DNA of 64,000 bases, from assembly GCF_036030735.1 (NCBI RefSeq), contig NZ_CP107928.1:3844001-3908000 (forward strand), in the 5' to 3' direction. The notes below the pieces were generated by a model. The model did not search any database. It was given only the letters and a program-made list of their open reading frames with translations, and had not been told where the DNA came from. Positions 17,498-58,901 of this stretch are shown here, piece by piece. The position numbers were made by a program, and so were the translations under genes. Source of the DNA: Streptomyces sp. NBC_00425 (GTDB lineage Bacteria; Actinomycetota; Actinomycetes; Streptomycetales; Streptomycetaceae). Each line of letters begins with the position of its first letter. The first letter of the stretch is position 1.

Positions 17498-17529
17498 GAC
17501 GGTCCCTCCCCGCCCGGGGAGGGACCGTC
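17498..17529. terminator. Hairpin terminator between the permease gene and the roadblock operon
   Basis: 14-bp arms GACGGTCCCTCCCC and GGGGAGGGACCGTC surround a GCCC loop, between convergent genes ending at 17451 and 17535. Confidence 0.85.
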
Positions 17530-17534
17530 CGCGT

Positions 17535-17963: not shown

Positions 17964-17967
17964 CCCT

Positions 17968-18393: not shown

Positions 18394-18497
18394 GAGTGCA
18401 ACTCCCCTGATTCTGATGGCATGTGACCGTCTGTTCTCTGTGGGGGGTTTCCGCGTGCCGTGGTGTCCCGCGTGGCCGTGGGGGTTCTGGCGGGCCG

Positions 18498-43225: not shown

Positions 43226-43374
43226 TGCGTGACTACCTCAGCACTGTATCCACGCCCCTGTGGCCGGAGAACAGCTTTCCGTAGCTGCCGGGCAAGTCTT
43301 CCTCGCGCAAGTCCCGCCAAACCGGGGCAGGTTACGCACACCGGTCCTCCACAAGCGGACCCGGCGACGACCCC

Positions 43375-43403
43375 TTGACAACGGAATTGGTCTGGACCAA
43401 CTT
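43375..43403 (+). promoter_or_regulatory. Chitinase promoter with -35 TTGACA
   Basis: TTGACA (43375-43380) is 17 bp before CAACTT (43398-43403), a weak -10 that ends six bases before ATG 43410. No Shine-Dalgarno is present, so the mRNA may be leaderless. Confidence 0.5.
43388..43399. promoter_or_regulatory. DasR-type operator (dre) in the chitinase promoter
   Basis: TGGTCTGGACCA differs by one base from the dre core TGGTCTAGACCA, the binding site of the GlcNAc-responsive repressor DasR. It lies between the -35 and -10 elements, where bound DasR would block RNA polymerase. Chitin genes are established DasR targets in Streptomyces. Confidence 0.7.
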
Positions 43404-43409
43404 GTTGTC

Positions 43410-45101
43410 ATGTCCCCACATAAAAGATCGACACGACTCTGGTCGGGCGCGGTGACCGCCGCGCTGACCCTCACCCTGGCGGGCGCGGCTCAGGCGTCCG
43501 CCGCGGACGTCAACAACGCGAAGAACGCCGGCTTCGAGTCCGGCCTGACCGGCTGGAGCTGTTCCGCGGGCAGCGGCGCCACCGTCTCCTCGCCCGTGCA
43601 CGGCGGCGCGGCCGCGCTGAAGGCGACGCCGGCCGGCCAGGACAACGCCCGGTGCTCCCAGACCGTGGCCGTGAAGCCCAACTCGACGTACTCGCTCGGC
43701 GCCTGGGTGCAGGGCGGCTACACCTACCTCGGCGTGACCGGCACAGGCACCACGGACGTCTCGACCTGGACGCCCGACTCGTCGTCCTGGAAGCAGCTGA
43801 CGACGACCTTCACCACGGGCTCGGCGACGACGTCCGTGACGGTCTACACGCACGGCTGGTACGGCCAGGCGGCCTACTACGCCGACGACGTCTCGGTGCA
43901 GGGCCCGGACGGCGGCGGGGGCGGCGACCCCACGCCCACGGTCCCGTCCGCACCGGCGGGCCTGACCGTCACGGGGACGACGTCGTCGTCGGTCTCCCTG
44001 GCCTGGAACGCCGTCTCCGGCGCGACCGGGTACAACGTCTACCGCGCGGGCACGAAGGTGACGGCGGTGACGGGCACGTCCGCGACGGTGACCGGGCTCG
44101 CGGCGTCGACGTCGTACGGCTTCCAGGTCACGGCGGTCAACGCGGCGGGCGAGTCGGCGAGATCGGCGACGGCCACCGGCACGACCGCCCCGGGCGGCGA
44201 CACCGGGGGTGGCGCCCTGCCCAGGCACGCCGTGACCGGATACTGGCAGAATTTCAACAACGGCGCGGCGGTCCAGCGGATCTCGGACGTCCCGGCCCAG
44301 TACGACATCATCGCCGTGGCCTTCGCGGACGCGACGACGACGCCGGGCGCGGTGACCTTCACCCTGGACTCCGCCGGACTGAACGGTTACACCGTCGACC
44401 AGTTCAAGGCGGACGTCCGCGCGAAGCAGAACGCCGGCAAGAAGGTCATCGTCTCGGTGGGCGGTGAGCGCGGCTCCGTCTCGGTGAACGACTCCGCCTC
44501 CGCCGCGAACTTCGCGAACTCGGTGTACGCGCTGATGCAGACGTACGGCTTCGACGGCGTCGACATCGACCTGGAGAACGGCCTCAATGCGACGTACATG
44601 TCACAGGCGCTGCGCTCCCTGTCCGCGAAGGCGGGCCCGTCGATGATCCTCACGATGGCGCCGCAGACGATCGACATGCAGTCGACGTCGAACGCCTACT
44701 TCCAGACGGCGCTGAACGTGAAGGACATCCTCACGGTCGTCAACATGCAGTACTACAACAGCGGTTCCATGCTGGGCTGCGACGGCAAGGTGTACGCGCA
44801 GGGCTCGGTGGACTTCCTCACCGCCCTCGCCTGCATCCAGCTGGAGGGCGGCCTGTCCCCGTCCCAGGTGGGCCTGGGCGTACCGGCCTCCACCCGCGGC
44901 GCGGGCAGCGGCTACGTCTCCCCGGCCGTGGTCGACAACGCCCTCGACTGCCTGACGAAGGGCACCGGCTGCGGTTCCTTCAGACCGTCGAAGACCTACC
45001 CCGCCCTGCGCGGCGCGATGACCTGGTCGACCAACTGGGACGCGACCGCCGGCAACGCCTGGTCGTCGACGGTCGGCCCCCACGTCCACGCCCTGCCGTA
45101 A
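43410..45101 (+). CDS. Secreted GH18 chitinase with CBM and FnIII domains
   Basis: This 563-aa exported enzyme has a signal peptide (to about residue 30, AQASA), then a carbohydrate-binding domain (about 33-170, NAGFESGLTGWSCSAG), a Pro/Gly linker, an FnIII domain (about 182-262), a second linker and a GH18 catalytic domain (about 272-560). The catalytic DxxDxDxE is D382-G-V-D-I-D-L-E389, with Glu389 the acid/base. It hydrolyses chitin. Its last 165 bp are duplicated at 57008-57174. The DasR-type operator overlaps its promoter. Confidence 0.95.
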   Translation: MSPHKRSTRLWSGAVTAALTLTLAGAAQASAADVNNAKNAGFESGLTGWSCSAGSGATVSSPVHGGAAALKATPAGQDNARCSQTVAVKPNSTYSLGAWVQGGYTYLGVTGTGTTDVSTWTPDSSSWKQLTTTFTTGSATTSVTVYTHGWYGQAAYYADDVSVQGPDGGGGGDPTPTVPSAPAGLTVTGTTSSSVSLAWNAVSGATGYNVYRAGTKVTAVTGTSATVTGLAASTSYGFQVTAVNAAGESARSATATGTTAPGGDTGGGALPRHAVTGYWQNFNNGAAVQRISDVPAQYDIIAVAFADATTTPGAVTFTLDSAGLNGYTVDQFKADVRAKQNAGKKVIVSVGGERGSVSVNDSASAANFANSVYALMQTYGFDGVDIDLENGLNATYMSQALRSLSAKAGPSMILTMAPQTIDMQSTSNAYFQTALNVKDILTVVNMQYYNSGSMLGCDGKVYAQGSVDFLTALACIQLEGGLSPSQVGLGVPASTRGAGSGYVSPAVVDNALDCLTKGTGCGSFRPSKTYPALRGAMTWSTNWDATAGNAWSSTVGPHVHALP

Positions 45102-45498
45102 TCGGCCGACCTGGCGCAATGCCGCGTTGCCTTCCGTGACCACCCCATGTGATCTTGGGGAACATGAGTGCGGAGGGCGACGCGGCAGAGCCGATGGACG
45201 TCCTGTGCCCTTCGCCACGCAGACGACACCACGGCCGAATCACCCTTCGACACCTTGAAGAATGAATAGGTATCACGGGCGGCTTACGGCGGGGCCCCTC
45301 ACCAGATTCCGCACCTTACGCCCTATTCCGCTGCAGTCGACGACGCCTCCACTCGATGGCTGATTAAAGCCTGAAGTGCGGACAGAAGAAGCAACGGCAC
45401 TTGGGGTGTGAGCCACCCCAATTCCGGTTGACATGTACAGGTGGGCGATCGTTTACCGTGCGGGACCTTTTTGCAAATTTCATACATGGGGGGACTCC
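45102..45498. other. 397-bp intergenic region upstream of the island genes
   Basis: No gene is supported. The first ~30 bases after the chitinase stop still resemble the sequence after the duplicated copy at 57175. From about 45250 the base composition is less GC-rich. A candidate promoter for the LamG protein lies at 45428-45457 (TTGACA, 18 bp, TTTACC). Confidence 0.6.
45428..45457 (+). promoter_or_regulatory. Candidate promoter of the LamG/RHS operon
   Basis: TTGACA (45428-45433) with TTTACC (45452-45457) after 18 bp. The -10 is weak. The LamG gene starts at GTG 45499. Confidence 0.45.
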
Positions 45499-48400
45499 GT
45501 GAAGTCGGAGTGGGGGTTTGCGGTGCCCGTGTGCAGGCCACGGCGACCGAGACGCACGGCCGCTGGGGGAATCATGGCTGCGCTGATGGTGTCGGCACTG
45601 CCTGTTCTGCCGATGGCGGTCCCGGCGTCTGCCGCGGCAAATAAGACATCGGCCGATGCAGTCGGTGGGGCGACCGCATCGGCGCGGGCTCAGGCGTCGG
45701 GTGAGCCGGTGGAAGTAACAGCGGATCGAACCGAGTACTCGATTACGAAGGCGAATCCGGACGGCACCTTCACACTGACGCAATCGGCGTCACCGCAGCG
45801 TGTGCACGCCGATGACGGTTCATGGGATCCGGTTGACACCACCCTGGTGCGTCGCCCGGATGGCACTGTCGGGCCCAAGTCAACTGTGGTGAACCTGTCG
45901 TTCTCGGGCGGCGGGAACGATGCCATGGTGAAGTTGGGCAGCGAGCGAGGAACGCTACGCCTGAACTGGCCGGGCAGGCTGCCCGAGCCGCGCCTCGACG
46001 GCGCGAAGGCCGTCTATGCCGAGGTCATCGAAGGCGTGGATCTGGAGTTGACTGCGACGGCCGAGGGCTATCGTGAGGTTCTCGTCGTGAAGTCGGCCGA
46101 AGCCGCTGCCGATTCGGCACTGGAACGCATTCAGCTACCGGTGTCGTCCCCGGACCTGCAGGTGCTGCCAGGCGCGGGGGGTGGCGTGCGCGCAGTGGAC
46201 GGGAACGGCAACACCGTCTTCCACGGCCCGGCCGGCCAGATGTGGGACTCCTCTGGCGAAACCGCCGAGAAGGGCATGAGCAGCGCAAGCAACAAGTCCG
46301 GCGACGGCACCAGTACGCAGCTCACGGCGGTCACCCGGCTCGGCTCCGGTACCCGGACCGCGAAGGTCACCGACACCGCACTGTCCACCGCGGAAATGCC
46401 CGACCCGGTGGAGTACGGCACTCAGCCGCGGTCCGGTGACGTCAGCACGGTGATGCCGGTGACAGTCACGGACGATGCCGTCGCGGTCAAGCCCGACCTC
46501 GCCCTGCTGCGCGGCAAGGACACTGTCTACCCGGTACGCATCGACCCCTCGGTGGGTCTGAGCGTGTCCGAGCGGACCGTGCTCTCTTCGGACGGCGACA
46601 AGTTCTGGCAGTTCAACGGTGACTACGGCGTCGGCCGTTGTAGCGTCTCGGGCCCGTACTACTGCGGCAACAACTACACCAACCGCATGTACTTCCAGTT
46701 CGCCCCCTCCAAACTGTCCGGCAAGAACGTGCTGGATGCCACCTTCCGCGCGTATGAGACATGGTCGTTCTCCTGCTCTCCCCATTGGGTTGATCTGGTG
46801 CGCACCGACAACATCTCCGAGGGCACCAGGTGGCCTGGCCCGAAACTGCTGGATTTGATGGGCGACCAGAACATCTCCGCGGGTCGTGGCAACCAGTGCA
46901 ACCCCGACCAGCCCGACCGGTGGGTCGAGTTCAACGACAACTCCGCCGAGAGCGACGAGAACCTCACTTCTACGGTGCGCAGCTACGCCGACGGCAAGAT
47001 CTCCCGGCTGACGCTGGCGCTCAAGGCCAAGGACGAGTCCGACCCCGACGCGTGGAAGCGCTTCGACGACAACGCCGTCCTCCAGGTCATCTACACAGTC
47101 CAGCCCGGCGTGCCGACCTCCGTCGGTGTGATCCCCGGTGACGGGACCACCGCATACTGCAAGACGTCCTCCTCCGACCCCTTGATCGTCACCCGCCTCG
47201 ACCCGATGCTCCAGGCGCGCACACAGGCCAGGGTCACGCCGCGCACCACCGACGAAAAGGGTTCGCTCCAGGCGCAGTTCGCCGTCGAGCGCGGTGACGA
47301 CGCGGCTTGGCATCAGGTGTGGACCGGCAATCGCCCGGATGCGGGCTGGGACCCGGACGAGACCCTGGAGAAGCTGCGCCTGTCAAAGGGGGCCGATGGC
47401 GGCCTGTACCGACTGCGTTCGCGCACTCGGTCCCACTGGACGTGGGGCGGTAAGCCCGGAGACCTGTACTCCCCGTATTCCTCCTGGTGTTACTTCAAGA
47501 TCGACTCAACCGCGCCGAAGGCTCCCACCGTCAGCACCGGCACCCCGTACACCCAGTGCACGGCGAATCTGTGTGACGGTCAGGGTGGGCCGGGTGTGCC
47601 GGGCAGTTTCACCTTCACACCCAACACGGCCGACAAGGACATCACCGGGTACCGCTGGCGGCTGCTGACCACGTCTGCCAAGGACACCAAAGAGGTCACC
47701 GGGCCCACCGCCGCCGTCACGGACGTCACCCCGTCGTTGGCGGGCACGCAGGTCCTCTCCGTCGAAGCCAAAGACGTCCGAAACCGGTGGGGCACACCTG
47801 CGGAGTTCCTGTTCAAGGTCGCCCCGGCCATGGGTCCCACGGGCACCTGGCACTTCGACGATGTCCTGTCCAAGCCGGATGTAAGGACTGCCCGGGACAC
47901 CGCGACCGAAGGCATCCGGCATGACGCCACTCTCTACACCTCAGGGGTCGAATGGTCCAACCGCGGACGCCGCGGCCCGAACGATTACTCCCTGTGGCTC
48001 AACGACACTTCGGACACGACAGCACGCGCCGGCTATGCCGCCACCGATACCCCGGCTGTGAACAGTCAGGACTCCTTCACGCTCTCCGCCTGGGTGAATC
48101 TTGTCGACACCACGAAGGACCAGGTCGTGATGGCAGCGCCTGGCACCAACGCGTCGGCCTTCACCCTGTACTACTCGGCCACCGACAAGAAGTGGGTGTT
48201 CCAACGTACGGCAGCCGACGTCAAGGACACCCCGGTCTACGTGCGCTCGCTCTCTGATGCGCCAAACCCGCCGACGAAGGTGTGGACGCATCTGGCCGCT
48301 GTGTTCGACACCAAGAAGGACATGGACAAGACGAACGACACCATCCAGGTGTTCGTCAACGGCCGCCCGCAGGGCAAACCCGTCGTACTGAGCGCGGTCT

Positions 48401-49326
48401 CCGGCGCCTATCAGCCCTGGTTCGCCAATGGCGGCCTGATGTTCGGTCGTTCCCTGTCCGGCGGGCTCTACGGCGGAAACTTCCGCGGCGGCCTCGACGA
48501 GATCAACGTCTGGCAGCGTGTGCTGACCTCGGACGAGATCGCCGACGAGTCCCAGCTCCTGCAGGACGGCGTGCCGGCCACCGAACTCGTCGCCCACTGG
48601 AACACGGAATCCTCGGTGGGCACCCAGATCCAGGAAACCTCCGGCTACCGCCTCCCGAACCTGACGGTTTCCGGCAGCGGCGCGAGGGTGGACGCGGATG
48701 GGGCCACGGGCGGCAACGCTCTGGTGATGGACGGCGTTTCCGGCTACGCCACCCTGGCCGGTACGGTCGTCGACGAGAGCGGCTCATTCACCGTCTCGGC
48801 CAGGACCCGGTTGGATTCTGAAGCACTGGCCAAGAAGCCGGTCGGCTACCAGGCGCAGGTGGCCGCGCAGCAGGCAAGTGCGGGCGAGTCTTCGTGGGCG
48901 CTGTGGGTGGTCAAGCCCGCAGTCGGCGTCTACCAGTGGAAGTTCACCCGCACGGCCGTCGGCGCCGACGGCAAGGTCAGCCAGAGCGCCGAGGTGCTGG
49001 GCGACGACGCTCAGACCGACACGTGGGTGCAGGTCACCGGCGTCTTCGACGCTCAGGAGGCATGGCAGTGGACAGACCCGGCCGATGCCACGAAGACGGA
49101 GACCCGTCACGGCAGACTGCACCTGTTCGTCAACGAGTCCAACCCGCCCTCCGATGACGCAGCCGGTTTCGCCGCCGCCCAGTACGGCACCGGAGCCCTC
49201 ACCGTCGGCCGAGGCAGCCAAGGCGGCACGACTGGCCACTACCTGCCTGGTTCGCTGCAGGACCTGCGGATGTGGACCGGTGCGATGACCGCCGACCAGA
49301 TTTCCAGTCAGATCTTCGGCGGCTGA
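45499..49326 (+). CDS. Large secreted DNRLRE / LamG-like jellyroll protein
   Basis: This 1275-aa exported protein starts at GTG 45499 behind GGGGGG. The signal peptide ends near PASAAA (residue 46). A region of about 280 residues of beta-rich sequence leads to a DNRLRE-like segment (about 330-530: DPSVGLSVSERTVLSSDG ... LQVIYTV), then two LamG/jellyroll domains (about 830-1025 and 1080-1275). Several Cys suggest extracellular folding. In Streptomyces such proteins commonly precede RHS genes on one strand and may help display the RHS shell. GC3 is lower than in core genes. Confidence 0.85.
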   Translation: MKSEWGFAVPVCRPRRPRRTAAGGIMAALMVSALPVLPMAVPASAAANKTSADAVGGATASARAQASGEPVEVTADRTEYSITKANPDGTFTLTQSASPQRVHADDGSWDPVDTTLVRRPDGTVGPKSTVVNLSFSGGGNDAMVKLGSERGTLRLNWPGRLPEPRLDGAKAVYAEVIEGVDLELTATAEGYREVLVVKSAEAAADSALERIQLPVSSPDLQVLPGAGGGVRAVDGNGNTVFHGPAGQMWDSSGETAEKGMSSASNKSGDGTSTQLTAVTRLGSGTRTAKVTDTALSTAEMPDPVEYGTQPRSGDVSTVMPVTVTDDAVAVKPDLALLRGKDTVYPVRIDPSVGLSVSERTVLSSDGDKFWQFNGDYGVGRCSVSGPYYCGNNYTNRMYFQFAPSKLSGKNVLDATFRAYETWSFSCSPHWVDLVRTDNISEGTRWPGPKLLDLMGDQNISAGRGNQCNPDQPDRWVEFNDNSAESDENLTSTVRSYADGKISRLTLALKAKDESDPDAWKRFDDNAVLQVIYTVQPGVPTSVGVIPGDGTTAYCKTSSSDPLIVTRLDPMLQARTQARVTPRTTDEKGSLQAQFAVERGDDAAWHQVWTGNRPDAGWDPDETLEKLRLSKGADGGLYRLRSRTRSHWTWGGKPGDLYSPYSSWCYFKIDSTAPKAPTVSTGTPYTQCTANLCDGQGGPGVPGSFTFTPNTADKDITGYRWRLLTTSAKDTKEVTGPTAAVTDVTPSLAGTQVLSVEAKDVRNRWGTPAEFLFKVAPAMGPTGTWHFDDVLSKPDVRTARDTATEGIRHDATLYTSGVEWSNRGRRGPNDYSLWLNDTSDTTARAGYAATDTPAVNSQDSFTLSAWVNLVDTTKDQVVMAAPGTNASAFTLYYSATDKKWVFQRTAADVKDTPVYVRSLSDAPNPPTKVWTHLAAVFDTKKDMDKTNDTIQVFVNGRPQGKPVVLSAVSGAYQPWFANGGLMFGRSLSGGLYGGNFRGGLDEINVWQRVLTSDEIADESQLLQDGVPATELVAHWNTESSVGTQIQETSGYRLPNLTVSGSGARVDADGATGGNALVMDGVSGYATLAGTVVDESGSFTVSARTRLDSEALAKKPVGYQAQVAAQQASAGESSWALWVVKPAVGVYQWKFTRTAVGADGKVSQSAEVLGDDAQTDTWVQVTGVFDAQEAWQWTDPADATKTETRHGRLHLFVNESNPPSDDAAGFAAAQYGTGALTVGRGSQGGTTGHYLPGSLQDLRMWTGAMTADQISSQIFGG

Positions 49327-49500
49327 CCCTCAATCCACCCGCCAGGGCAGAACCGCCTTCCTGCCCTGGCCCCACACACTCGGGTGCCCCGAGGCACGTC
49401 GCAGGGGGTAGCCCCGCTCATGCTTGCCGGCCTCGTACGGCCCTTTCTCCCTCATGGCATGCGCCCGTCAGACCGCGGGCGTCTCGCAGGAAGAGACTTG

Positions 49501-52500
49501 ATGAATCCCTTTGGCATACCCAGACCTCCCACAGGTCACGGGCGCAGGACCGGGAAGCAGTGGTCCCGGCGTATCGCCGCCGCAACCGGCCTGGCCCTGC
49601 TGCCGGGACTGCTGACCCCTGTCGCCTTCGCCGCGGGCAACGACCCGCTGGGCCGGCCACACCTGGAAGCCCCGCACGCCACCAAGGTCACTGCGTTCAC
49701 CGCAAAGGTGAACCAAAAGGCTGCCGCCGAAGTACGCAACGCCGAAAAGGCCGACCGAGCGGCAGCCGCCAGGGCGCGGCACGATCAGCAGCGCAAGGTC
49801 ATCTGGCCGACAGCCGGAAAGGCGTCACTGACCGTCCCCGCCAAGGGTGCCGCCGAGGCAACCCCCGGCTCACTGCCAGTCAGCGCTGCGGCTGCCGGCA
49901 CGGGCAACAATGCCTCCTCCATCGGCGTAGAGGTTCTCGACCAGAAGGCCACCGCCGCACTCGGCGTAGACGGAGTCGCCCTCAAGCTCACCGGCCCCGA
50001 AACCGGCGGCAGCACACGCCTCGACATCGATTACTCGTCTTTCGCTTCCGCCTACGGCGGTGACTGGGCCGGCCGCCTCCAGGTCCAGCGCCTGCCCGAC
50101 TGCGCTCTCCAGAATCCGACGGCAGCTCGGTGCCACAAGCGAGCTGACCTGAACTCGGTGAACAATCGTGCCAAGAACAGGATCGCGGCACCGGTGAGCT
50201 TCGCCACCGGTGGCCAGACGATGCTGGTCGCCGTCGCAGCGGGCGCGAAGTCCGGAGCCGGCAGCTACAAGGCGACCTCACTGTCTGCCTCCTCCACCTG
50301 GGAGGCCGGCGGCTCATCCGGCACGTTTACGTGGTCCTATCCCCTCAGAGTGCCGCCCGCCGCAGCCGGCCCGGCCCCGGACCTGTCGATCTCCTACGAC
50401 TCCGGCGCTGTCGACGGCCAGACTGCGAACTCGAACAACCAGGGCAGCCAGGTAGGCACCGGCTTTGAACTGACCTCCTCCTATGTCGAGCGCAAGTACG
50501 GCTCCTGCGACGACGACGGCCAGGACGACAAGAACGACCTGTGCTGGAAGTACGACAACGCCTCGCTCGTCCTCAACGGCAAGTCCACCGAACTCGTCAA
50601 GGACGACATCACGGGCAGGTGGCGACTCAAGGACGACGACGCGTCCACCGTCATCCACTCCACCGGCGCCGACAACGGCGCTGACAAGGGCGAATACTGG
50701 ACGGTCGTCACGGGCAACGGCACGAAGTACGTCTTCGGCCTGAACAAGCTCTCCGGCGCCGGTGCCGGCGACCGCACCAACTCGGTGTGGACCGTACCGG
50801 TTTTCGGAGACGACACCGGCGAGCCGGGGTACTCGGAAGGCAGTTCCTTCTCCGACCGCGACAAGACCCAGGCCTGGCGCTGGAACCTCGACTACGTCGA
50901 GGACACCCACGGCAACGCCATGTCCTACTGGTATGCCGCCGAGCACAACAGCTACGACAAGCTCGGCGACGACAATGCCGGCACCGACTACGTCCGCGGC
51001 GGGTACCTCAGAGAGATCCGCTACGGCCAGCGCGCAGACACTCTGTTCTCGGGCTCACCCGCAGCCTCGGACAAGGTGGTCTTCAGCTACGGCGAACGCT
51101 GTCTTGCCTCGGGCAGTGGCTGTGACTCGCTGACCAAAGACACCCGCGACAACTGGCCGGACGTGCCGTTCGACGCGATCTGCAAGGACGGCGACAAGTG
51201 CACCGGTAACACCGGCCCGACGTTCTTCACCCGCAAGCGCATGACCGCGATCACCACCTACGCGTGGAACGCGGCAGCATCCACCCCCGCCTTCGAGGCC
51301 GTGGACGCATGGTCGCTCAAGCACCTCTACCTCGACCCGGGCGACACAGGTGACTCCACGGACGAGTCGCTGTGGCTCGACGAGATCAAGCACACCGGCA
51401 AACGCGGCACCGACCTGTCCCTGGACCCCGTCCGGTTCAGCCACGTCATGATGTCCAACCGCGTCGACGGCACCGACAACATCCTCCCGCTGAACAAGCC
51501 CCGCCTGAAAACCGTCACCTCGGAGACCGGCGCGCAGACGATCGTCACCTACCTGGACGCCGACTGCACCGCCTCCGGTGCCAAGCCCAAGCTGGACGAG
51601 AACTCCAAGCGCTGCTACCCGGTCTACTGGTCGCCCAACGGCGAGAAGTCCCCGATTCTCGACTGGTTCCAGAAGTACCCGGTCAGCGCCGTCTCCACCA
51701 CCGACCCCCAGGGCGGCTCCGAAGCCGTCCAGCACAGCTACCAGTACACCGGCGGCGGAGCCTGGCATTACGACGAAAACCCGTTCACGCCCGCCAAGGA
51801 ACGCACCTGGTCCATCTGGCGCGGATTCCAGCAGGTCACCCATCTCACCGGCGTCACCGGACAGACACAGAGCAAGCAGACCACGGTCTACCTGCGCGGC
51901 ATGAACGGCGACCGCGTACTCGACTCGGACGGCAAAACCCTCGACCCGGACAAGCGCAAAACCGTCACCGTCTCCGCCGTCAAGGCGGGCGGGATCATCG
52001 ACTCGGAGCAGTACGCGGGCTTCACCCGTGAGTCCGTCACCTACAACGGCACCACTGAAGTGGCCGGCACCGTCAACGATCCCTGGTCGAAGAGGACTGC
52101 GACCCAGCACAAGTCATACGCCGACACCGAGGCGTACTACATCCGCACAGCAGCCACCCACACCCGCACCAACATCACCAGCAAGCTCACCCCGTACGAC
52201 CGGGTGCATACGGTCAAGACGACCTACGACGACTACGGCATGGCCCAAACCGTCGAGGACCAAGGCGACGACGCCGTCAAGGATGACGAGAAATGCACCC
52301 GCACCTGGTATGCCCGTAACGACGACAAGGGCATCAACTCCCTCGTCTCCCGCGTCCGTACGGTAGCTGCTCTTTGCGCGACCACGGATGCGTCACTCGA
52401 CCTGCCGGCCGACTCCAAGCGGGCTGGTCAGCTCATCTCCGACAGCGCAACCGTCTACGACGACAGCACGGCCACCACCTGGGCGGCGTCACAGACGCCC

Positions 52501-55500
52501 GTCAAAGGCGAAGCCACCTGGACCGGCCGGGTGAGGGGCTACGGCAGCGACGACACTCCCATCTGGCAGAAGATCGCGACGACGACCTACGACACGCTCG
52601 GCCGCCTTCAGCTCGTCAAGAACACCAACGGTCAGAAGGTCTCCTTCACCACCTACACGCCCGCATCGGCCGGCCCACTCACGTCGACGGTGGTCACCGA
52701 CGTGAAGGATTACACGACGAGCACGGTCCTGGACTTCGCGACCGGTGCGACCCTCAACGTCACCGATTCCAACAACAAGGTCACAGAAAGCGAGTACGAC
52801 AGCCTCGGCCGCATCACCAGACTCTGGCTGCCCAACCGCTCCAAGGCGATCGGAAGGACTCCGAACTACGTCTACGGCTACCAGGTCACCAGTTCCGGCC
52901 TGTCCTGGACCTCCACCGCGGCCCTCAAGTACGACGGGTCCGGTTACAACACCGCCTACGAGCTTTACGACTCCCTTCTGCGCTCACGCCAGGTCCAGAC
53001 GCCGACCCCTCAGGGTGGCCGACTCATCTCCCAGACCCTCTACGACGCACGCGGTCTCGCGGTCAGCCAGCAGTCCGACATCTGGGACAACACCTCACTG
53101 CCCAGCGCCAAGCCCGCTCAGATAGACGGCGGTCAGGCCCCCATCGAGACCGATACGACGTACGACGGGGCGGGCCGGGCCACGAAGGCGGTGACGAAGG
53201 TCCACGGCGTCACCCGCTGGACGACGGACACCACCTACGCAGGCGACACCGTCTCCACCACCGCCCCGACCGGCGGACAGGCCACCGCCGTGGTCACCAA
53301 CGCACTCGGTCAGACCAGCCAGCGCCGCGAGTACGCAGGTCCGAACCCGACCGGCACGGACTACACCACGACCGATTACACCTACACCCCGGCAGGCCAG
53401 CAGGAGACGGTCACCGGCCCCGACCAGACCAAGTGGTCCTACACCTACGACCTTTTCGGCCGCCAGGTCACCACGACAGACCCCGACAAGGGCAAGTCCA
53501 GCGCCGAGTACAACGAACTCGACCAGATCGTCAGCACCACCCCCAACGACGATGCCTCGAAGAAGCTGCTTTTCGAGTACGACGTCCTTGGCCGCAAGAC
53601 CGGTATGTGGCAGGCCGACAAGAGTGATGCCAACAAGCTCGCCGCCTGGGGCTTCGACGAGGTGGCCAAGGGACAGCAGGACACCGCCACCCGCTACGAC
53701 GGAGGCGTGAGCGGCAAGGCTTACACCCAGAAGGTCACCGCCTACGACTCGATGTACCGGGTGACCAACAGCCAGCTGCTTCTGCCCGACACCGAACCCC
53801 TCGTCTCCGGCGGGTACATAAACAAGACGCTGTCGTTCACCACGGGCTACAACCTCGACGGCACCATCAGCCAGTACTCCGCACCCGCCGCCGGCGGCCT
53901 TGCCGCCGAAACCGTCTCCTACACCTCCAACGCGCTGGGGATGCAGCTCACCGCGAAGGGCACCACCGGCTACCTGCAGGGTGCCGCCTTCTCCCCGCAG
54001 GGCGACCTGCGCCAGCTCACGCTGGGCAAGGACCCCACGTCCTCGGCGAAGAAGGCCTACCTCAACTGGGACTACGAGGACGGAACTCGCCGCCTGACCC
54101 GTTCCTACGTCACCGACGACGTCCACGGCTATATGCCGCAGGAGCTGAAGTTCACCCAGGACGACGCGGGCAACGTCACTTCCATCTTCGACGCCACCAC
54201 CCAGGGCGGCACCGCCAAGGCCGACTACCAGTGCTTCGCCTACGACGGCAACCGCCGCATGACCGAAGCCTGGACACCCAAAGCCGCCGACTGCGCAACG
54301 TCCGGTCGAACCACTGCCAACCTCGACGGCGCCGCCCCGTACTGGACGTCGTACACGTTCAACACCGCGGGCCAGCGCCAGACGGAAACCCAGCACGCCC
54401 CGGCCGGTGACAAGACCACCACGTACGTCTACGACGACTCCACAGCCGACAACAGACCTCACACCCTCGACAAGACGACCGGCGACCGCTCCGGCGCCTA
54501 CCGCTACGACAACAGCGGCAACACCACATCGCGCCCCGGCTCCTCCAACCAGCAGACCCTTGACTGGAACATCGAGGGCAATCTGACCAAGCTCACCGAG
54601 AAAACCAAGGAGACCAGCTACCTCTACGACGCCGGCGGCGAACTCCTCATCCGCCGCGCCAAGGGTGACGGCGACACCATCCTCTACCTGGGCGGCGGCA
54701 CGGAACTCCGCCTGACCGCCAAGGGGACCACGAAGACCGCCTCCGGCACCCGCTACTACACGGCCAACGGCCAGACCATCGCCGTCCGCACCGCCACCTC
54801 CGGGGTCTCCGGCACAAAGCTCAGCTTCCTCGCCTCCGACCACCACGGCACCTCCAGCATCACCCTCGACGCCGCCACCTACGCGGCCACCAAGCGCTAC
54901 AGCACCCCGTTCGGCGCACCACGCGGCAGCAAGGCATCGTGGCCGGACGACAAAGCATTCCTCGGCAAGCCGGCCGACGACACAACCGGCCTCACTCACG
55001 TCGGCGCCCGCGAGTACGACACCACCATCGGCCAGTTCATCAGCGTCGACCCGATCCTTGCGCTGGAACAACACCAGTCACTCAACGGGTACAGCTATGC
55101 CGGCAACGCCCCGGTCACTCAGTCCGACCCAAGTGGCCTCTGCTTTGCAGACGTCTGTGGCGTCGGTACCCCCAAGGGTGACGGTTCCGGGAATATCATC
55201 ACGGACGGCCCTATCGACCCGGGACACCCGGGTGCCGGCAGCTGCCACCACGGTAGCTGTGGCCCAGTCCACTACAACGAGACCAGCAGCGGCACGTCGC
55301 ACACAAACAGCTCCGGCAACACGAACAGCGGTCCGCGCTACTCCTGCAGTGGAGTGGGCCCCGCCGAACGATGCCAGCTCGTCACGGGGTCGGACGACTC
55401 CAGCACGAACGCCGGCAACTACCTGTCGAGCCTCGTCCATAACGGGGACTTCTGGTCCGGGCTGATCGAGACGGTTGGCGGCGCCTTCGCCGAAGGCGGC

Positions 55501-56037
55501 GGGATGTTCCTCTTCGCCTCCGGTGTCGTCGAGTGCGGAACGGGTGTCCTGTGCGCGGCCGGTGCTCCGTCCATGGCCGGAGGAGCCTCCCTTGTCGTGG
55601 CCGGCAAGCCACTCATCGACTCGGGGTCGGACAAGCTGGGTCAGGCGTTCAGGGAGGCCGACGGCGCTGCGTCCGGCGGCGGTGGGAGCGGCGGAGCCAT
55701 CGCCGAGAAGAATGGCAAGGCCTACGAGCGGTTCCTCGAGGAGAAGCTGGGCGGTGGCGGAGAGTTCATGGAGAACGGCCGCCAGTTCGACGGCGCGTAC
55801 ATCGACTCGGTCACCGGCCGCGGCACCTGGTACGAGGCAAAGTCCGGAAGGTTCTTCGAGGATACGCTCAAGGACCCCAAGCGACTGAGCAAGTTCTACT
55901 CCACGGAAGGGCAGAAGGCGGGGATCGCCCGGGATCGCGGAATTCCCTACCAGATCATCACCGAAAATCCGATTCCGGATCAGATCGCCAACTGGCTACA
56001 GAAGAAGGGAATTCCGTGGACCGTGATGCCGCAATAG
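49501..56037 (+). CDS. RHS-repeat polymorphic toxin with PD-(D/E)xK nuclease-like C-terminus
   Basis: This 2178-aa exported protein starts at ATG 49501 behind AGGAAGAG. It has a signal peptide (about residues 1-44), an N-terminal beta-rich region resembling SpvB/TcB modules (DLSISYDSGAVDG, GTGFELTSSYVERKYG), then RHS/YD repeats up to the core motif ending QFISVDPILALEQHQSLNGYSYAGNAPVTQSDPSGL near residue 1880. The C-terminal 300 residues hold a Ser/Gly/His-rich spacer, a hydrophobic helix pair (about 1990-2045) and a terminal domain with D2097, E2112-x-K2114, a PD-(D/E)xK signature. It is probably a DNase delivered to competitor cells; target inferred. Confidence 0.9.
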   Translation: MNPFGIPRPPTGHGRRTGKQWSRRIAAATGLALLPGLLTPVAFAAGNDPLGRPHLEAPHATKVTAFTAKVNQKAAAEVRNAEKADRAAAARARHDQQRKVIWPTAGKASLTVPAKGAAEATPGSLPVSAAAAGTGNNASSIGVEVLDQKATAALGVDGVALKLTGPETGGSTRLDIDYSSFASAYGGDWAGRLQVQRLPDCALQNPTAARCHKRADLNSVNNRAKNRIAAPVSFATGGQTMLVAVAAGAKSGAGSYKATSLSASSTWEAGGSSGTFTWSYPLRVPPAAAGPAPDLSISYDSGAVDGQTANSNNQGSQVGTGFELTSSYVERKYGSCDDDGQDDKNDLCWKYDNASLVLNGKSTELVKDDITGRWRLKDDDASTVIHSTGADNGADKGEYWTVVTGNGTKYVFGLNKLSGAGAGDRTNSVWTVPVFGDDTGEPGYSEGSSFSDRDKTQAWRWNLDYVEDTHGNAMSYWYAAEHNSYDKLGDDNAGTDYVRGGYLREIRYGQRADTLFSGSPAASDKVVFSYGERCLASGSGCDSLTKDTRDNWPDVPFDAICKDGDKCTGNTGPTFFTRKRMTAITTYAWNAAASTPAFEAVDAWSLKHLYLDPGDTGDSTDESLWLDEIKHTGKRGTDLSLDPVRFSHVMMSNRVDGTDNILPLNKPRLKTVTSETGAQTIVTYLDADCTASGAKPKLDENSKRCYPVYWSPNGEKSPILDWFQKYPVSAVSTTDPQGGSEAVQHSYQYTGGGAWHYDENPFTPAKERTWSIWRGFQQVTHLTGVTGQTQSKQTTVYLRGMNGDRVLDSDGKTLDPDKRKTVTVSAVKAGGIIDSEQYAGFTRESVTYNGTTEVAGTVNDPWSKRTATQHKSYADTEAYYIRTAATHTRTNITSKLTPYDRVHTVKTTYDDYGMAQTVEDQGDDAVKDDEKCTRTWYARNDDKGINSLVSRVRTVAALCATTDASLDLPADSKRAGQLISDSATVYDDSTATTWAASQTPVKGEATWTGRVRGYGSDDTPIWQKIATTTYDTLGRLQLVKNTNGQKVSFTTYTPASAGPLTSTVVTDVKDYTTSTVLDFATGATLNVTDSNNKVTESEYDSLGRITRLWLPNRSKAIGRTPNYVYGYQVTSSGLSWTSTAALKYDGSGYNTAYELYDSLLRSRQVQTPTPQGGRLISQTLYDARGLAVSQQSDIWDNTSLPSAKPAQIDGGQAPIETDTTYDGAGRATKAVTKVHGVTRWTTDTTYAGDTVSTTAPTGGQATAVVTNALGQTSQRREYAGPNPTGTDYTTTDYTYTPAGQQETVTGPDQTKWSYTYDLFGRQVTTTDPDKGKSSAEYNELDQIVSTTPNDDASKKLLFEYDVLGRKTGMWQADKSDANKLAAWGFDEVAKGQQDTATRYDGGVSGKAYTQKVTAYDSMYRVTNSQLLLPDTEPLVSGGYINKTLSFTTGYNLDGTISQYSAPAAGGLAAETVSYTSNALGMQLTAKGTTGYLQGAAFSPQGDLRQLTLGKDPTSSAKKAYLNWDYEDGTRRLTRSYVTDDVHGYMPQELKFTQDDAGNVTSIFDATTQGGTAKADYQCFAYDGNRRMTEAWTPKAADCATSGRTTANLDGAAPYWTSYTFNTAGQRQTETQHAPAGDKTTTYVYDDSTADNRPHTLDKTTGDRSGAYRYDNSGNTTSRPGSSNQQTLDWNIEGNLTKLTEKTKETSYLYDAGGELLIRRAKGDGDTILYLGGGTELRLTAKGTTKTASGTRYYTANGQTIAVRTATSGVSGTKLSFLASDHHGTSSITLDAATYAATKRYSTPFGAPRGSKASWPDDKAFLGKPADDTTGLTHVGAREYDTTIGQFISVDPILALEQHQSLNGYSYAGNAPVTQSDPSGLCFADVCGVGTPKGDGSGNIITDGPIDPGHPGAGSCHHGSCGPVHYNETSSGTSHTNSSGNTNSGPRYSCSGVGPAERCQLVTGSDDSSTNAGNYLSSLVHNGDFWSGLIETVGGAFAEGGGMFLFASGVVECGTGVLCAAGAPSMAGGASLVVAGKPLIDSGSDKLGQAFREADGAASGGGGSGGAIAEKNGKAYERFLEEKLGGGGEFMENGRQFDGAYIDSVTGRGTWYEAKSGRFFEDTLKDPKRLSKFYSTEGQKAGIARDRGIPYQIITENPIPDQIANWLQKKGIPWTVMPQ

Positions 56038-56078
56038 CCGCTTTGAGTCGAGGCAGTGCAAATGGAAAGGACGGATTT

Positions 56079-56510
56079 GTGTCCAGAACTGTAGACATCG
56101 ACTTCACCTTCGGGGAGGCCATTTCGGTCTCGGAGGTACTGCATGCCCTGCTCGGTGCCGGACTGCGTATGCCGTCGGACACCGAGGTGCCGTATCTCGT
56201 CGACGAGGACGGCATGTTCGAGTGGCAGAAGGCGGCCGCTTCCGACGTGGACGACGTCATCTCCCGGCTGGCGGACAAGCGGTGGGAGGACAGGGCCGTC
56301 GGCATGACCCTGCTTCTTCCCGACGGGCCCCACGGCGGTGATCTCCTGTTCCATCCGGGGCGAACCTCGGTATCGTTCGTGGTCGCCGTCCACCCCAGGT
56401 ACCTGCCGGATTCCTCCCGTTTCTGCGACCTGGGTTGGTACCTGGCGCGGTTGGTTCCCGCACTCGAGCCGCTGGGACTGGCGGAGATTGAAGCCCGGGA
56501 CGCGCCGTAG
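56079..56510 (+). CDS. Candidate immunity protein for the RHS toxin
   Basis: This 143-aa protein is taken from GTG 56079, with AAAGGA seven bases upstream. An in-frame GTG at 56016 inside the RHS 3' end also has a good AAGGGA site and would add 21 residues, but those codons lack GC3 bias. The protein is acidic, cytoplasmic and without transmembrane helix (VDIDFTFGEAISVSEVLHALLGAGLRMPSDTEVPYLVDEDGMFEW). It is the gene directly after the toxin, the usual place for the cognate immunity gene. No family is recognised. Confidence 0.75.
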   Translation: MSRTVDIDFTFGEAISVSEVLHALLGAGLRMPSDTEVPYLVDEDGMFEWQKAAASDVDDVISRLADKRWEDRAVGMTLLLPDGPHGGDLLFHPGRTSVSFVVAVHPRYLPDSSRFCDLGWYLARLVPALEPLGLAEIEARDAP

Positions 56511-56548
56511 GGATGCGGCTGTGGCCTTTTCCTTCGAGTTCGTGAGAC

Positions 56549-56584
56549 CGTCCGCCGCCGGGGAGAGATCCCCGGCGGCGGACG
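56549..56584 (+). terminator. Terminator after the immunity gene
   Basis: 16-bp arms CGTCCGCCGCCGGGGA and TCCCCGGCGGCGGACG surround GAGA, 39 bases after the immunity stop. It ends the LamG-RHS-immunity unit. Confidence 0.8.
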
Positions 56585-56630
56585 CATGCGAGGAGGGCGG
56601 CGGTTACGGGTACGCCGCCACGTACGCCAC

Positions 56631-56994
56631 CCGCAGGCCGGTAGTGGCTGAGGACCCAGGCGAGTTGGGGGAGTCAGGCGTGGAGGCGGTCTTTCGGCTT
56701 GGCCGTGACTACGCATTCGTAGACCCGGCCGTCAACGTGGACGACGGCGACCATGAGGGCCTTGCCGTTGGGGCTCGGCTTGTAGTGGACGCTGCGGATC
56801 TCGGGCCAGGGGAAGTCGACGGTGATGTCGTACATCTCGAAGGCGACGCCCGCCGCGTCCACGACGACCGCGTTGTGCTTGTCCACGGCCGTGAAGTCCG
56901 GGCCGGCCGACTGCTGCGGGGCGTACTGCGGCGGGGGCGGCCCGAACCCCGGCGGTGTTTACGGAGGAGGAGGCGGCGGCTGCTGCTCTGTCAC
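56631..56994 (-). pseudogene. Broken copy of the small Pro-rich gene at 58536-58901
   Basis: The segment is nearly identical to 58541-58901. It begins at GTG 56994 (VTEQQPPPPPP) but meets an in-frame TAA after eleven codons, and a second TGA (after DRLHA) cuts the C-terminus that the intact copy ends as HTWLPQLAWVLAHYRPAG. The middle, VDKHNAVVVDAAGVAFEMYDITVDFPWPEIRSVHYK, is preserved. A restart at ATG 56886 could make at most 70 residues. The homology stops exactly at the start codon; beyond it the sequence is unrelated. Confidence 0.85.
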
Positions 56995-57007
56995 CAATTA
57001 ATTCCGA

Positions 57008-57174
57008 AACGCCCTCGACTGCCTATAAAGAAGGGCGCTGGCTGCGGTTCCTTCAAACCGTCGAAGACCTACCCCGCCCTGCGCGGCGCGATGACCTGGT
57101 CGACCCACTGGGACGCGACCGCCGGCAACGCCTGGTCGTCGACGGTCGGCCCCCACGTACACGCCCTGCCGTAA
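57008..57174 (+). pseudogene. Duplicated 3' end of the chitinase gene
   Basis: This is a near-exact copy of the last 165 bp of the chitinase (44937-45101), from AACGCCCTCGACTG to HVHALP and the TAA. A two-base insertion (ATAAAGAAGG for GACGAAGG) breaks the frame and a TAA follows NALDCL. There is no start, promoter or upstream chitinase sequence, so it is a scar. The 13 bases between it and the broken copy of the small gene (56995-57007) are unlike either parent. Confidence 0.92.
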
Positions 57175-57328
57175 CCCTTCCGCGACCACGCCACACCGAG
57201 CACCACTGCGCACTGCGACACTGGACGCCACGTGACGCCCCTCGGTGAGAGCGATCCGAGATCGTTCCCACCAGGGGCTTCACGCCCCACCCGGACCCAG
57301 GCACCTCACAGCCCGCGACGCACGCACC

Positions 57329-57380
57329 GCGATCACAGCGATCACAGCGATCACAGCGATCACAGCGATCACAGCGATCA
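57329..57380. repeat. Tandem 9-bp repeat
   Basis: GCGATCACA is repeated five times in perfect register and followed by a partial sixth copy (GCGATCA). The unit is a multiple of three bases, but no ORF across it has other coding signs. Confidence 0.95.
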
Positions 57381-57443
57381 ACGGGCGTTTACCGGGAAAG
57401 GACCGGTGACTGACTGAAATAGAAGGCATGGAGATCGCGCAAC

Positions 57444-57815
57444 GTGAACGATGTCGAACTGCCGGAAATGCGGAAGAGTGTACTCTCCGCCGTCCATGCT
57501 CTATCAGATGAGGGCTACCAGCGGCGGGTGTGGATTCGCAAGGAGTATCCCGATGAAGGTTACTATGATGACTTCGAAACGAACCTTCACATCCTTTTCG
57601 ATGACACCCCGGTGCTCGATGACCCTGAATCGTCGGTCGGGATGATTCTGAGAAGTTGAGATGAGGCGGGGGCCTTGAAGGGACTGGCTGTGGCCATCGA
57701 CAGTCTGCTCGCCCGGGAAGGGGGAGATCGAGAAGACGTCGACTACATCAATTCCCCCCTCTGGGGTGCCGTGGTGAGTGCGGCTTCGATCGCGCTTGCT
57801 GCAATGAATCGTTAA
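57444..57815 (+). pseudogene. SCO4402-family-like protein interrupted by an in-frame TGA
   Basis: The ORF from GTG 57444 reads ELPEMRKSVLSAVHALSDEGYQRRVWIRKEYPDEGYYDDFETNLHILFDDTPVLDDPESSVGMILRS and stops at TGA 57657-57659. In the same frame it continues DEAGALKGLAVAIDSLLAREGGDREDVDYINSPLWGAVVSAASIALAAMNR to TAA 57813. Both halves together resemble the SCO4402 family, small soluble proteins often linked with toxin loci. A single nonsense mutation or readthrough are both possible. GC3 is low compared with core genes. Confidence 0.7.
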
Positions 57816-57839
57816 TCCAGAGCCTTCGGAGGGTCAGTC

Positions 57840-58337
57840 ATGGAGATTCACTTCGTCCCAGCTTCGATGAAACGGCCCACGGAGCAGCAGCTTGCATGCC
57901 TCGACCGAGCAAGTGCAATGGATCTCCGGTACGACTACTTCTTCGTCAATATCAGCTTGAGCATGCGCGAGTTCGGGAGAGAGAATTTTCCCGGAACTCC
58001 CGCTTTGGACTTCGTCTACCGCGTCCTGGCCGCCGCCGAGAACGCGCACCGAGGCATTCCCGGGCAGATCTCTTTCACGGAAAACGATCTCCTGATCAGT
58101 CTGGTTCCCGATGGCACCGAGGTGACGGTGACGCGATCCTGGGACCCAGCGGCCGCAACCTGCTCGGTCGATGACCTCGTAGCCGCTTCGTGTGAGTTTT
58201 GCAAAGATCTCATCGATGACACGGTTCGAAAGTACCCGGCATTCCAGGGAAACCCCTTCTTTTCGAAGCTGCAGAAGATGCAAGCCGCCCTGAGTTGCGG
58301 CTGCCAAGCGTCGTCCCGTGACTGCTGGTCACAGTGA
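57840..58337 (+). CDS. Hypothetical protein, possible orphan immunity gene
   Basis: This 165-aa cytoplasmic protein starts at ATG 57840 with a strong GGAGGG site six bases upstream. It has no signal or membrane segment. It is mixed alpha/beta (MDLRYDYFFVNISLSMREFG ... ISFTENDLLISLVPDGTEVTVTRSWDP), with a Cys cluster at the C-terminus (AALSCGCQASSRDC). Low GC3 and position after the RHS island fit an orphan immunity protein carried over from an earlier toxin tip. I do not recognise a family. Confidence 0.7.
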   Translation: MEIHFVPASMKRPTEQQLACLDRASAMDLRYDYFFVNISLSMREFGRENFPGTPALDFVYRVLAAAENAHRGIPGQISFTENDLLISLVPDGTEVTVTRSWDPAAATCSVDDLVAASCEFCKDLIDDTVRKYPAFQGNPFFSKLQKMQAALSCGCQASSRDCWSQ

Positions 58338-58535
58338 GCCGGTGGCGCCGGCTCATCAGCCGAAGAGGAGGTCGACGTCCTTCTCTGTGCAGAGCTGCTG
58401 AAATGATCTCGCCGTGACGGGTGTGATCACGGCGTGGGAACCCTCCTGGATACGCCTGTTCACTGGGTGGAGCCTGCGTCAGTTCAGCAAGCCTGTCAGC
58501 GCGTTGCGGCGTAGGGCTTCGGGGCCAGCGGCTGG
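58338..58535. other. 198-bp region with a possible gene remnant
   Basis: On the minus strand a short open stretch (about 58366-58475) reads VNRRIQEGSHAVITPVTARSFQQLCTEKDVDLLFG and stop, which has a protein-like composition but no recognised family. It is probably the C-terminal remnant of a lost gene. Nothing else is supported. Confidence 0.4.
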
Positions 58536-58901
58536 TCAGCCCGCAGGCCGGTAGTGGGCAAGGACCCAGGCCAGTTGGGGGAGCCAGGTGTGGAGGCGGT
58601 CTTTCGGCTTCGCCGTGACCACGCATTCGTAGACCCGGCCGTCGACGTGGACCACGGCGACCATGAGCGCCTTGCCGTTGGGGCTCGCCTTGTAGTGGAC
58701 GCTGCGGATCTCGGGCCAGGGGAAGTCGACGGTGATGTCGTACATCTCGAAGGCGACGCCCGCCGCGTCCACGACGACCGCGTTGTGCTTGTCGACGGCC
58801 GTGAAGTCCGGGCCGGCCGGCTGCTGCGGGGCGTACTGCGGCGGGGGCGGCCCGAACCCCGGCGGTGTGGAGGGAGGAGGAGGCGGCGGCTGCTCTGTCA
58901 C
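58536..58901 (-). CDS. Small Pro-rich protein with PH-like C-terminal domain, intact copy
   Basis: This 121-aa cytoplasmic protein starts at GTG 58901. Residues 1-35 are Pro/Gln-rich (TEQPPPPPPSTPPGFGPPPPQYAPQQPAGP). The remainder (VDKHNAVVVDAAGVAFEMYDITVDFPWPEIRSVHYKASPNGKALMVAVVHVDGRVYECVVTAKPKDRLHTWLPQLAWVLAHY) is a beta-rich fold of about 85 residues, reminiscent of PH-like DUFs. Function is unknown. A damaged copy lies at 56631-56994 on the same strand. It is divergent from the ECF sigma gene. Confidence 0.8.
   Translation of the reverse strand: MTEQPPPPPPSTPPGFGPPPPQYAPQQPAGPDFTAVDKHNAVVVDAAGVAFEMYDITVDFPWPEIRSVHYKASPNGKALMVAVVHVDGRVYECVVTAKPKDRLHTWLPQLAWVLAHYRPAG

What the first reader, a model, noticed from the sequence alone, without database searches (positions are those of the whole stretch)
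44937..58901. RHS toxin island bounded by a tandem duplication of a chitinase end and a small gene
The last 165 bp of the chitinase (44937-45101) recur at 57008-57174 in the same orientation, and the small Pro-rich gene recurs in broken form (56631-56994) and intact form (58541-58901), also in the same orientation. The order chitinase end - cargo - small gene is thus found twice: once with LamG-RHS-immunity as cargo and once with two immunity-like ORFs. The copies of the chitinase end differ by a 2-bp indel and a few substitutions, so the event is not brand new. Recombination between the 165-bp repeats would delete about 12 kb (LamG, RHS, immunity and the broken small gene); between the small-gene repeats, about 1.9 kb. 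Seen directly: the repeats and their order. Inference: that they reflect integration by duplication and allow cargo exchange.
Basis: partly seen in the sequence, partly recalled or inferred. Interest (0 to 1): 0.8.

Follow-up and report, generated by a model that had tools for sequence, protein, structure and literature searches.

The report
Stacked toxin loci beside a chitinase
In this Streptomyces chromosome two different gene packages, one of them a bacterial toxin with its likely antidote, appear to have been stacked behind the same chitinase gene, leaving copies of the neighbouring gene ends as scars, at a spot where a number of related strains carry other toxins of the same type.

Summary
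The repeats are real. The chitinase end (44937-45101) recurs at 57008-57174, and the small minus-strand gene (58536-58901) at 56630-56994, both about 95% identical. Sister genome G013 has single copies and no cargo. G110 keeps the tail of orfB (right-hand cargo) beside its small gene. The left cargo is a LamG-RHS-imm1 package of a kind also found on Streptomyces plasmids.

Best explanation: two alleles of one variable locus were joined. Incoming chitinase-LamG-RHS-imm1-small DNA paired in the chitinase flank, and its right end was joined without homology (13-bp AT-rich filler) into the resident chitinase end. G142 shows the same topology independently (1 of 157 other loci scanned).

Beyond this window, RHS genes or remnants lie downstream of this chitinase in 18 of 151 other distinct loci, against 0 of 35 upstream, in two carrier types, both orientations and with mostly different tips. 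Similar displacement of toxin modules is known from Vibrio (Kirchberger 2017); a chitinase-anchored Streptomyces dock did not turn up in eight paper searches. No recombinase was recognised. The donor allele, toxicity and immunity are inferred.

The parts
42290..43225 (-). SAF-domain-type gene, left neighbour of the chitinase (domain name recalled, not searched)
   Evidence: found before the chitinase in most loci whose upstream side was held and in 5 of 5 further RHS-bearing loci
43260..45101 (+). chitinase (GH18 with CBM_4_9 and Fn3), the proposed anchor gene, intact
   Evidence: Pfam PF00704 E 1.6e-21; 94% identical DNA in G013
45102..45205 (.). post-chitinase DNA shared with G013, with the truncated start of an SseB-like gene; left edge of the cargo at about 45205
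   Evidence: homology to G013 runs through 45205 and then stops; similar gene in this place in L090 and L183 (named by resemblance)
45433..49326 (+). LamG-domain protein, partner of the RHS gene (cargo 1)
   Evidence: PF13385 E 8.4e-28; DNRLRE_dom below its cut-off; best DNA match in the other 391 genomes 77%
49384..56037 (+). RHS polymorphic toxin, 2217 aa, unclassified C-terminal tip (about residues 2085-2217)
   Evidence: TIGR03696 Rhs core E 2e-16, PF03534 and PF05593 above cut-off; tip shared with other RHS carriers; no Pfam or PDB sequence match for the tip alone
56079..56510 (+). imm1, presumed immunity gene of the RHS tip, 143 aa
   Evidence: 29 proteins matched, its own included, where named from Streptomyces and one Embleya; confident model without a clear fold match
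56630..56994 (-). small' : degenerate copy of the small gene (premature stop, end missing)
   Evidence: 95% to the intact copy; 8 derived changes against 2 in the intact copy
56995..57007 (.). junction filler, 13 bp, 31% G+C
57008..57174 (+). chi' : copy of the last 165 bp of the chitinase, with a 2-bp insertion
57184..57400 (-). remnant of a transposase 5' end
   Evidence: 57184-57341 is 72-74% to the region at the start of a transposase-like gene in L161 and L163, and matches L162, L164, L165
57444..57815 (+). orfA, SCO4402/DUF7945 family gene with an in-frame stop (broken)
   Evidence: NF047838 E 8.2e-25, PF25656, translation
57840..58337 (+). orfB, 165 aa, no known family, possible immunity gene of a lost toxin (cargo 2)
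   Evidence: 2 proteins matched in 5.8 billion, one of them identical; 85% identical tail next to the small gene in G110
58315..58516 (.). remnant of a minus-strand ORF joined to the 5' end of a DDE transposase gene (IS5-type by resemblance)
   Evidence: PF01609/PF13359 in the complete relative L160
58536..58901 (-). small gene, 121 aa, intact, the right flank
   Evidence: found before the sigma gene in many relatives
59021..59530 (+). sigma-factor-like gene, outer right flank (name by resemblance)
   Evidence: neighbour in many relatives

Best explanation
The 3' side of a conserved chitinase gene is a docking site where Streptomyces exchange RHS toxin loci. Here two alleles were stacked. The resident allele was chitinase - IS-scarred orfA/orfB - small gene. 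A close strain's allele (chitinase - LamG - RHS - imm1 - small gene) came in, paired by homologous recombination in or upstream of the chitinase, and its right end, at the start codon of its small gene, was joined without homology into the resident chitinase 167 bp before its end (13-bp filler, as end joining leaves). That single event yields chi - LamG - RHS - imm1 - small' | chi' - orfA/orfB - small. The redundant chi' and small' then decay while the outer copies stay under selection. Resident orfB is kept, possibly as orphan immunity. Shown: repeats and their ends, an empty site, part of the resident cargo in a relative, a second case with the same topology, RHS clustering at the site. Inferred: the donor allele, the event itself, toxin and immunity activity.
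For: Empty site in G013: about 300 bp from chitinase end to small gene, flanks 93-95% identical. Resident cargo: orfB tail beside the small gene in G110. The cargoes are unrelated in sequence, so plain tandem duplication does not suffice. Both repeat pairs are closer to each other (small 95.3%, chitinase end 95.8%) than either copy is to G013 or, for the small gene, G110 (90.3-93.3%), so both units come from one close lineage; the inner copies carry most derived changes. The junction has AT-rich filler, and the genome encodes Ku. G142 (L094) independently has the last 55 bp of its chitinase (96%) fused, with a 2-bp overlap, to a truncated DUF397-like gene at the right edge of a 7.4-kb cargo. 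The left flank is constant (SAF gene and chitinase in 5 of 5 further RHS loci tested) while the right flank varies, as one-sided anchoring predicts. LamG plus RHS packages occur on plasmids: the RHS core there is 66-68% identical to the window's.
Against: No genome with cargo 1 alone at this site was seen (LamG DNA best 77% in the other 391 genomes searched), so the donor allele is hypothetical. The 4-5% divergence of the copies fits an old in-place duplication as well. Such scars are rare (1 of 157 other loci for the chitinase end, 0 of 78 for the small gene), so most exchange must leave none. Immunity function of orfB, orfA and imm1 is unproven; orfA belongs to a family not known to me as immunity proteins.
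Confidence: 0.6

Rival explanations
1. In-place tandem duplication of the chitinase-end to small-gene stretch in one genome, followed by replacement of the cargo in one or both units.
For: Same order and orientation of the repeats; the copies are sisters relative to other genomes; the junction would look the same.
Against: Needs at least one extra replacement, because the cargoes share no sequence; orfB stands beside the small gene in G110, where only one small-gene match was found at the locus.
Confidence: 0.22
2. IS-mediated assembly: insertion sequences landed beside the chitinase, and rearrangements between IS copies brought the cargo and duplicated the ends.
For: Transposase remnants lie on both sides of cargo 2, one starting 10 bp after chi'.
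Against: The left edge of cargo 1 (45102-45432) matches nothing else in the genome and no plasmid, and the right edge and junction (56511-57030) match no plasmid, unlike the IS remnants, which match many; the G142 case is a direct fusion.
Confidence: 0.08
3. Site-specific integration into the 3' end of the chitinase gene, the repeat being attL/attR.
For: Repeats end about at the stop codon in two genomes (window; G142), as with elements that restore a gene's 3' end.
Against: No integrase recognised among the main ORFs of the window cargo or by eye in the ORF list of G142, which was not domain-searched; no tRNA in the window; repeat lengths differ (165 and 55 bp); the island would contain a copy of a flank gene.
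Confidence: 0.06
4. Assembly artefact.
For: Repeats can cause misassembly.
Against: Single 9.8-Mb contig; the copies differ by 4-5% and are short; a tail of cargo 2 is shared with another genome.
Confidence: 0.02

Closest known systems
Effector displacement and orphan immunity arrays of Vibrio cholerae T6SS clusters (Kirchberger 2017, PMC5361080; passages read)
   Same: A new toxin-immunity module is added upstream of older genes kept downstream; the authors suggest a mechanism akin to homology-facilitated illegitimate recombination with an upstream anchor.
   Different: Here the anchor is an unrelated chitinase, not a secretion or toxin gene; the toxins are RHS proteins of a Gram-positive; copies of flank-gene ends, not toxin ends, mark the event.
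Rhs/CDI orphan modules and Rhs tip displacement (Poole 2011; seen only as a reference in the passages, otherwise recalled)
   Same: RHS cores kept while tips are swapped: cores of the T7SS kind from the chitinase site are 53-86% identical, while among 15 proteins only 1 pair has tips alignable over their whole length and the other tip matches are pieces of 17-49 residues.
   Different: In the window a whole LamG-RHS-imm1 package was added, not a tip alone.
LamG-RHS packages on Streptomyces plasmids (NZ_CP107946.1, NZ_CP129138.1)
   Same: LamG gene followed by an RHS gene whose core is 66-68% identical to the window's; in NZ_CP129138.1 an annotated Imm1-family immunity gene follows.
   Different: Annotated tips differ (HINT type; DddA-like deaminase); plasmid-borne; LamG 52-60% identical; no chitinase listed in the stretches shown.

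Membership tests
RHS polymorphic toxin system | RHS core domain and YD/RHS repeats | tested here: met
   TIGR03696 E 2e-16; PF05593 and PF03534 above cut-off
RHS polymorphic toxin system | C-terminal tip found on different carrier proteins | tested here: met
   tip relatives on HINT-, DUF6531- and T7SS-signal-type carriers (33 proteins)
RHS polymorphic toxin system | cognate immunity gene directly downstream | tested here: inconclusive
   imm1 follows; close relatives of both tip and imm1 occur in Streptomyces sp. NPDC005811 on contigs of the same length (79,025); neutralisation not shown
RHS polymorphic toxin system | secretion signal | not tested
   a Sec-type signal is an impression from the letters only
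Displacement / orphan-immunity array by homology-facilitated illegitimate recombination | homologous anchor on one side | tested here: met
   shared SAF-chitinase flank and duplicated chitinase end; that pairing happened there is inferred
Displacement / orphan-immunity array by homology-facilitated illegitimate recombination | non-homologous junction on the other side | tested here: met
   13-bp filler in the window; 2-bp overlap in G142
Displacement / orphan-immunity array by homology-facilitated illegitimate recombination | old immunity gene kept, old effector lost | tested here: inconclusive
   orfB is open and has no toxin beside it, but matches no known family
Site-specific genomic island | integrase or recombinase gene inside the repeats | tested here: not met
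   none among the Pfam/NCBIfam matches of the six main ORFs of the island and its right flank
Site-specific genomic island | excision or circular form | not testable with these tools
   needs reads or PCR
Composite transposon | two related IS copies bounding the cargo | tested here: not met
   only fragments of two different transposase genes, bounding cargo 2 alone; none at the edges of cargo 1

The most novel reading that the evidence does not exclude
The stretch behind this chitinase is a genus-wide RHS toxin dock. A non-toxin core gene serves as the one-sided homologous anchor through which unrelated classes of RHS toxins (T7SS-signal RHS with WXG/SseB-like partners, and LamG-linked RHS) are repeatedly loaded, swapped and occasionally stacked without any recombinase, so that flank-gene scars record each stacking event.
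Probability: 0.45. Interest if true: 0.65.

Novelty: new variant of a known kind. Interest (0 to 1): 0.52.

Why it matters
If right, it gives a fixed address in Streptomyces at which toxin exchange can be followed strain by strain, and a rare allele-stacking event caught with both ends readable. It would extend the Vibrio displacement model to Gram-positive RHS toxins, show that an ordinary core gene can act as the anchor, and point to an unexplained link between a chitinase locus and RHS toxins.

Tried and rejected
Site-specific integration: no recombinase among the searched ORFs, no tRNA. RNA element: no Rfam match at gathering score in 44.9-59.1 kb. Cargo 2 as a copy of cargo 1: no similarity. 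IS at the edges of cargo 1: none by search of the own genome (left edge) and plasmids (both edges). Tip identification: no Pfam match listed even at E 10 and no PDB sequence match at E 1, so a restriction-endonuclease-like impression from the letters stays a guess. imm1 fold: confident model (mean pLDDT 90) but no PDB match at E <= 0.001. Donor search: LamG DNA in 392 genomes, own included (best other 77%); on plasmids the LamG protein reaches about 60% at best among the 8 rows listed of 141 records, and imm1 stays below 60% in all 10 records; no plasmid record covers 80% of cargo 2. Literature: eight searches of open-licence papers only; the one asking for Rhs, chitinase, toxin, downstream, Streptomyces and integration site together returned none. 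I read passages of PMC5361080; other papers were seen as listings with the start of the abstract.

Limits: ORFs in relatives were called by a simple length and GC3-versus-GC2 score of my own. The RHS panel was built from RHS genes found at this site plus the window's RHS and LamG (LamG left out), so RHS of other kinds elsewhere could be missed. Locus choice was by similarity of the chitinase or small gene, not by RHS, but only the best-scoring rows of each search were fetched, and genomes are one per species and not independent: RHS presence needs at least 11 changes on a FastTree chitinase tree of 152 rows (8 forced by well-supported branches; shuffled mean 18.2, so the label is clustered). 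No whole-genome RHS density was computed; the controls are neighbouring DNA only. One search found RHS repeats in 10 of 10 genomes examined (14-73 repeat matches each), G013 and G110 included, so RHS genes as such are common.
Full report
Observation. In 42-61 kb only two direct-repeat families of 40 nt or more were listed outside the RHS gene: the chitinase end (44957-45101 and 57030-57174, 97% ungapped, 12,073 bp apart) and the small gene (56630-56929 and 58540-58839, 95%, 1,910 bp apart). With the 2-bp indel the chitinase copy is 57008-57174 (158 of 165 aligned letters). The small gene is on the minus strand; its first copy has a premature stop and lacks its normal end. Between the copies lie 13 bp of 31% G+C in a window of 69.8% G+C.

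Gene content. Left cargo: LamG-domain protein (45433-49326), RHS protein of 2217 aa (49384-56037), imm1 (56079-56510). Right cargo: a broken SCO4402-family gene (orfA) and orfB, which matches no family, between remnants of two different transposase genes (57184-57400 and 58398-58516). The two cargoes have no DNA similarity. No tRNA, Rfam element or recombinase was recognised.

Relatives. The order SAF gene - chitinase - small gene - sigma gene is the common background, though many genomes lack the small gene, or both right-hand genes, in the DNA held. In G013, 93-95% identical in the flanks, chitinase and small gene are about 300 bp apart with no cargo, and homology with the window continues for 104 bp after the chitinase and stops at 45205, marking the left edge of the insert; those 104 bp hold the start of an SseB-like gene. 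In G110 the chitinase is mostly deleted, but a tail of orfB (58169-58303, 85%) stands directly beside the small gene, so the right cargo is best read as an older allele of the locus. The left cargo is foreign to the near relatives: LamG DNA is at best 77% identical in the other 391 genomes searched, and that match, in G016, lies on a different contig from that genome's chitinase.

Sister copies and decay. Over the small gene the two window copies share 345 of 362 letters (95.3%), against 90.3-92.5% to G013 and G110; over the chitinase end 158 of 165 (95.8%), against 92.7-93.3% to G013. Both units therefore come from one close lineage. Within the aligned small gene (counted by me from the listing, leaving out columns outside the gene), the degenerate copy carries 8 changes not shared with G013 and G110 and the intact copy 2; for the chitinase end 3 plus the indel against 1. 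The decaying copies are the inner ones, as expected if the outer genes stay in use.

Survey. I held 171 loci, chosen by chitinase or small-gene similarity; 6 were duplicates. In 89 distinct loci the chitinase is followed by small and/or sigma genes in the background orientation: interval under 0.5 kb in 52, 0.5-1.5 kb in 11, 1.5-4 kb in 12, over 4 kb in 14. RHS genes or remnants lie in 8 of these 89 intervals (L075, L080, L219, L229, L252, L253 with long open frames; L146 and L206 as remnants) and nowhere in the other 1.38 Mb held for those 89 loci. A further 10 loci, without small or sigma genes in the DNA held (some on short contigs), have RHS sequence starting 0.7-2.5 kb after the chitinase; the upstream side was fetched for 5 of these 10 and shows the SAF gene and chitinase in all 5. 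In all, 18 of 151 distinct chitinase loci have RHS downstream. Of loci with enough DNA held, 12 of 102 have RHS within 8 kb downstream, 0 of 35 within 8 kb upstream, and 1 of 83 has a hit starting at 8-16 kb downstream. Two more loci (L142, L150) have RHS next to the small gene but no chitinase 3' end was recognised in them.

Kinds of toxin. Pfam finds RHS repeats in all seven relatives' proteins tested. L080, L229, L252, L253 and L150 also carry DUF6531, the first four with WXG100-like or T7SS-signal domains; L219 has RHS repeats with a Scabin-like ADP-ribosyltransferase-type tip; L075 is of the window's kind, with an inverted LamG partner, an LHH nuclease tip and a SUKH-type protein beside it. 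Across 15 RHS proteins from the site, cores of the T7SS kind are 53-86% identical, the two LamG-linked cores 51%, yet only one pair (L190, L194) has tips alignable over their whole length. Presence of RHS needs at least 11 changes on a chitinase tree of 152 rows, fewer than in shuffles, so it is partly inherited and partly turned over. I read this as an old, often lost, tip-swapped T7SS-type RHS locus plus separate LamG-linked RHS insertions at one site. One presumed immunity gene beside the small gene is seen whole in S. torulosus, fused in S. ossamyceticus and eroded in MA5143a.

Second case of the scar. Scanning 157 loci (duplicates not removed) for a copy of the last 300 bp of their own chitinase found one: G142 (L094), last 55 bp, 96%, next to the sigma gene, 7.4 kb after the real end. 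It is fused with a 2-bp overlap to a truncated DUF397-like gene that stands intact before the sigma gene in L090 and L096. The small gene is duplicated in 0 of 78 other loci.

Mechanism. A single recombination between two alleles explains the window: homologous pairing in the shared chitinase flank, then an end-joined right side inside the resident chitinase end. The genome encodes Ku, compatible with end joining. G142 shows the same topology with other cargo. No IS sequence was found at the edges of cargo 1. Kirchberger et al. proposed a mechanism akin to homology-facilitated illegitimate recombination for Vibrio effector-immunity arrays and note that it is rare relative to ordinary recombination (PMC5361080, passages), which fits the rarity of scars here beside the many cargo differences. 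Plasmids are a plausible vehicle: LamG relatives occur on 141 plasmid records, 125 of them named Streptomyces, and in the two inspected the LamG gene is followed by an RHS gene whose core is 66-68% identical to the window's, in one followed by an annotated Imm1-family gene.

Verdict. Observation confirmed; interpretation partly supported and sharpened: stacked alleles at a chitinase-anchored RHS toxin site. Known in kind, new in place, anchor and taxon as far as my searches reach. Donor allele, toxicity, immunity and excision are untested.

Noticed in passing
window 57327-57380: Short tandem array of the 9-mer GATCACAGC between chi' and orfA; a similar array (96% over 50 bases) exists in genome G222 (L166).
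   Followed up: partly
L190, L194, L198, L225, L234, L235, L251 downstream of the chitinase: T7SS-type RHS genes with cores 75-86% identical but different tips in all pairs except L190/L194, in several preceded by SseB-like and WXG-like genes (named by resemblance): a natural series of tip swaps at one address.
   Followed up: partly
L150, L144, L147 beside the small gene: The same presumed immunity gene in whole, fused and eroded form next to the small gene, with and without an RHS toxin.
   Followed up: no
L066 (G110) 16488-18780: Chitinase reduced to fragments and replaced by an acetyltransferase-like gene (by resemblance) plus remnants, beside a 95% identical left flank.
   Followed up: partly
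G000:C1:548542-549074: A second Ku-like stretch in two frames, one with an in-frame TAG, besides the intact gene at 3573376-3573921.
   Followed up: no
window 56549-56584: Inverted repeat after imm1, likely a terminator closing the LamG-RHS-imm1 unit (self match on the other strand).
   Followed up: no
L085 (G122) and L176 (G396): The small gene lies on the other side of the sigma gene, so the small gene itself can change place.
   Followed up: no
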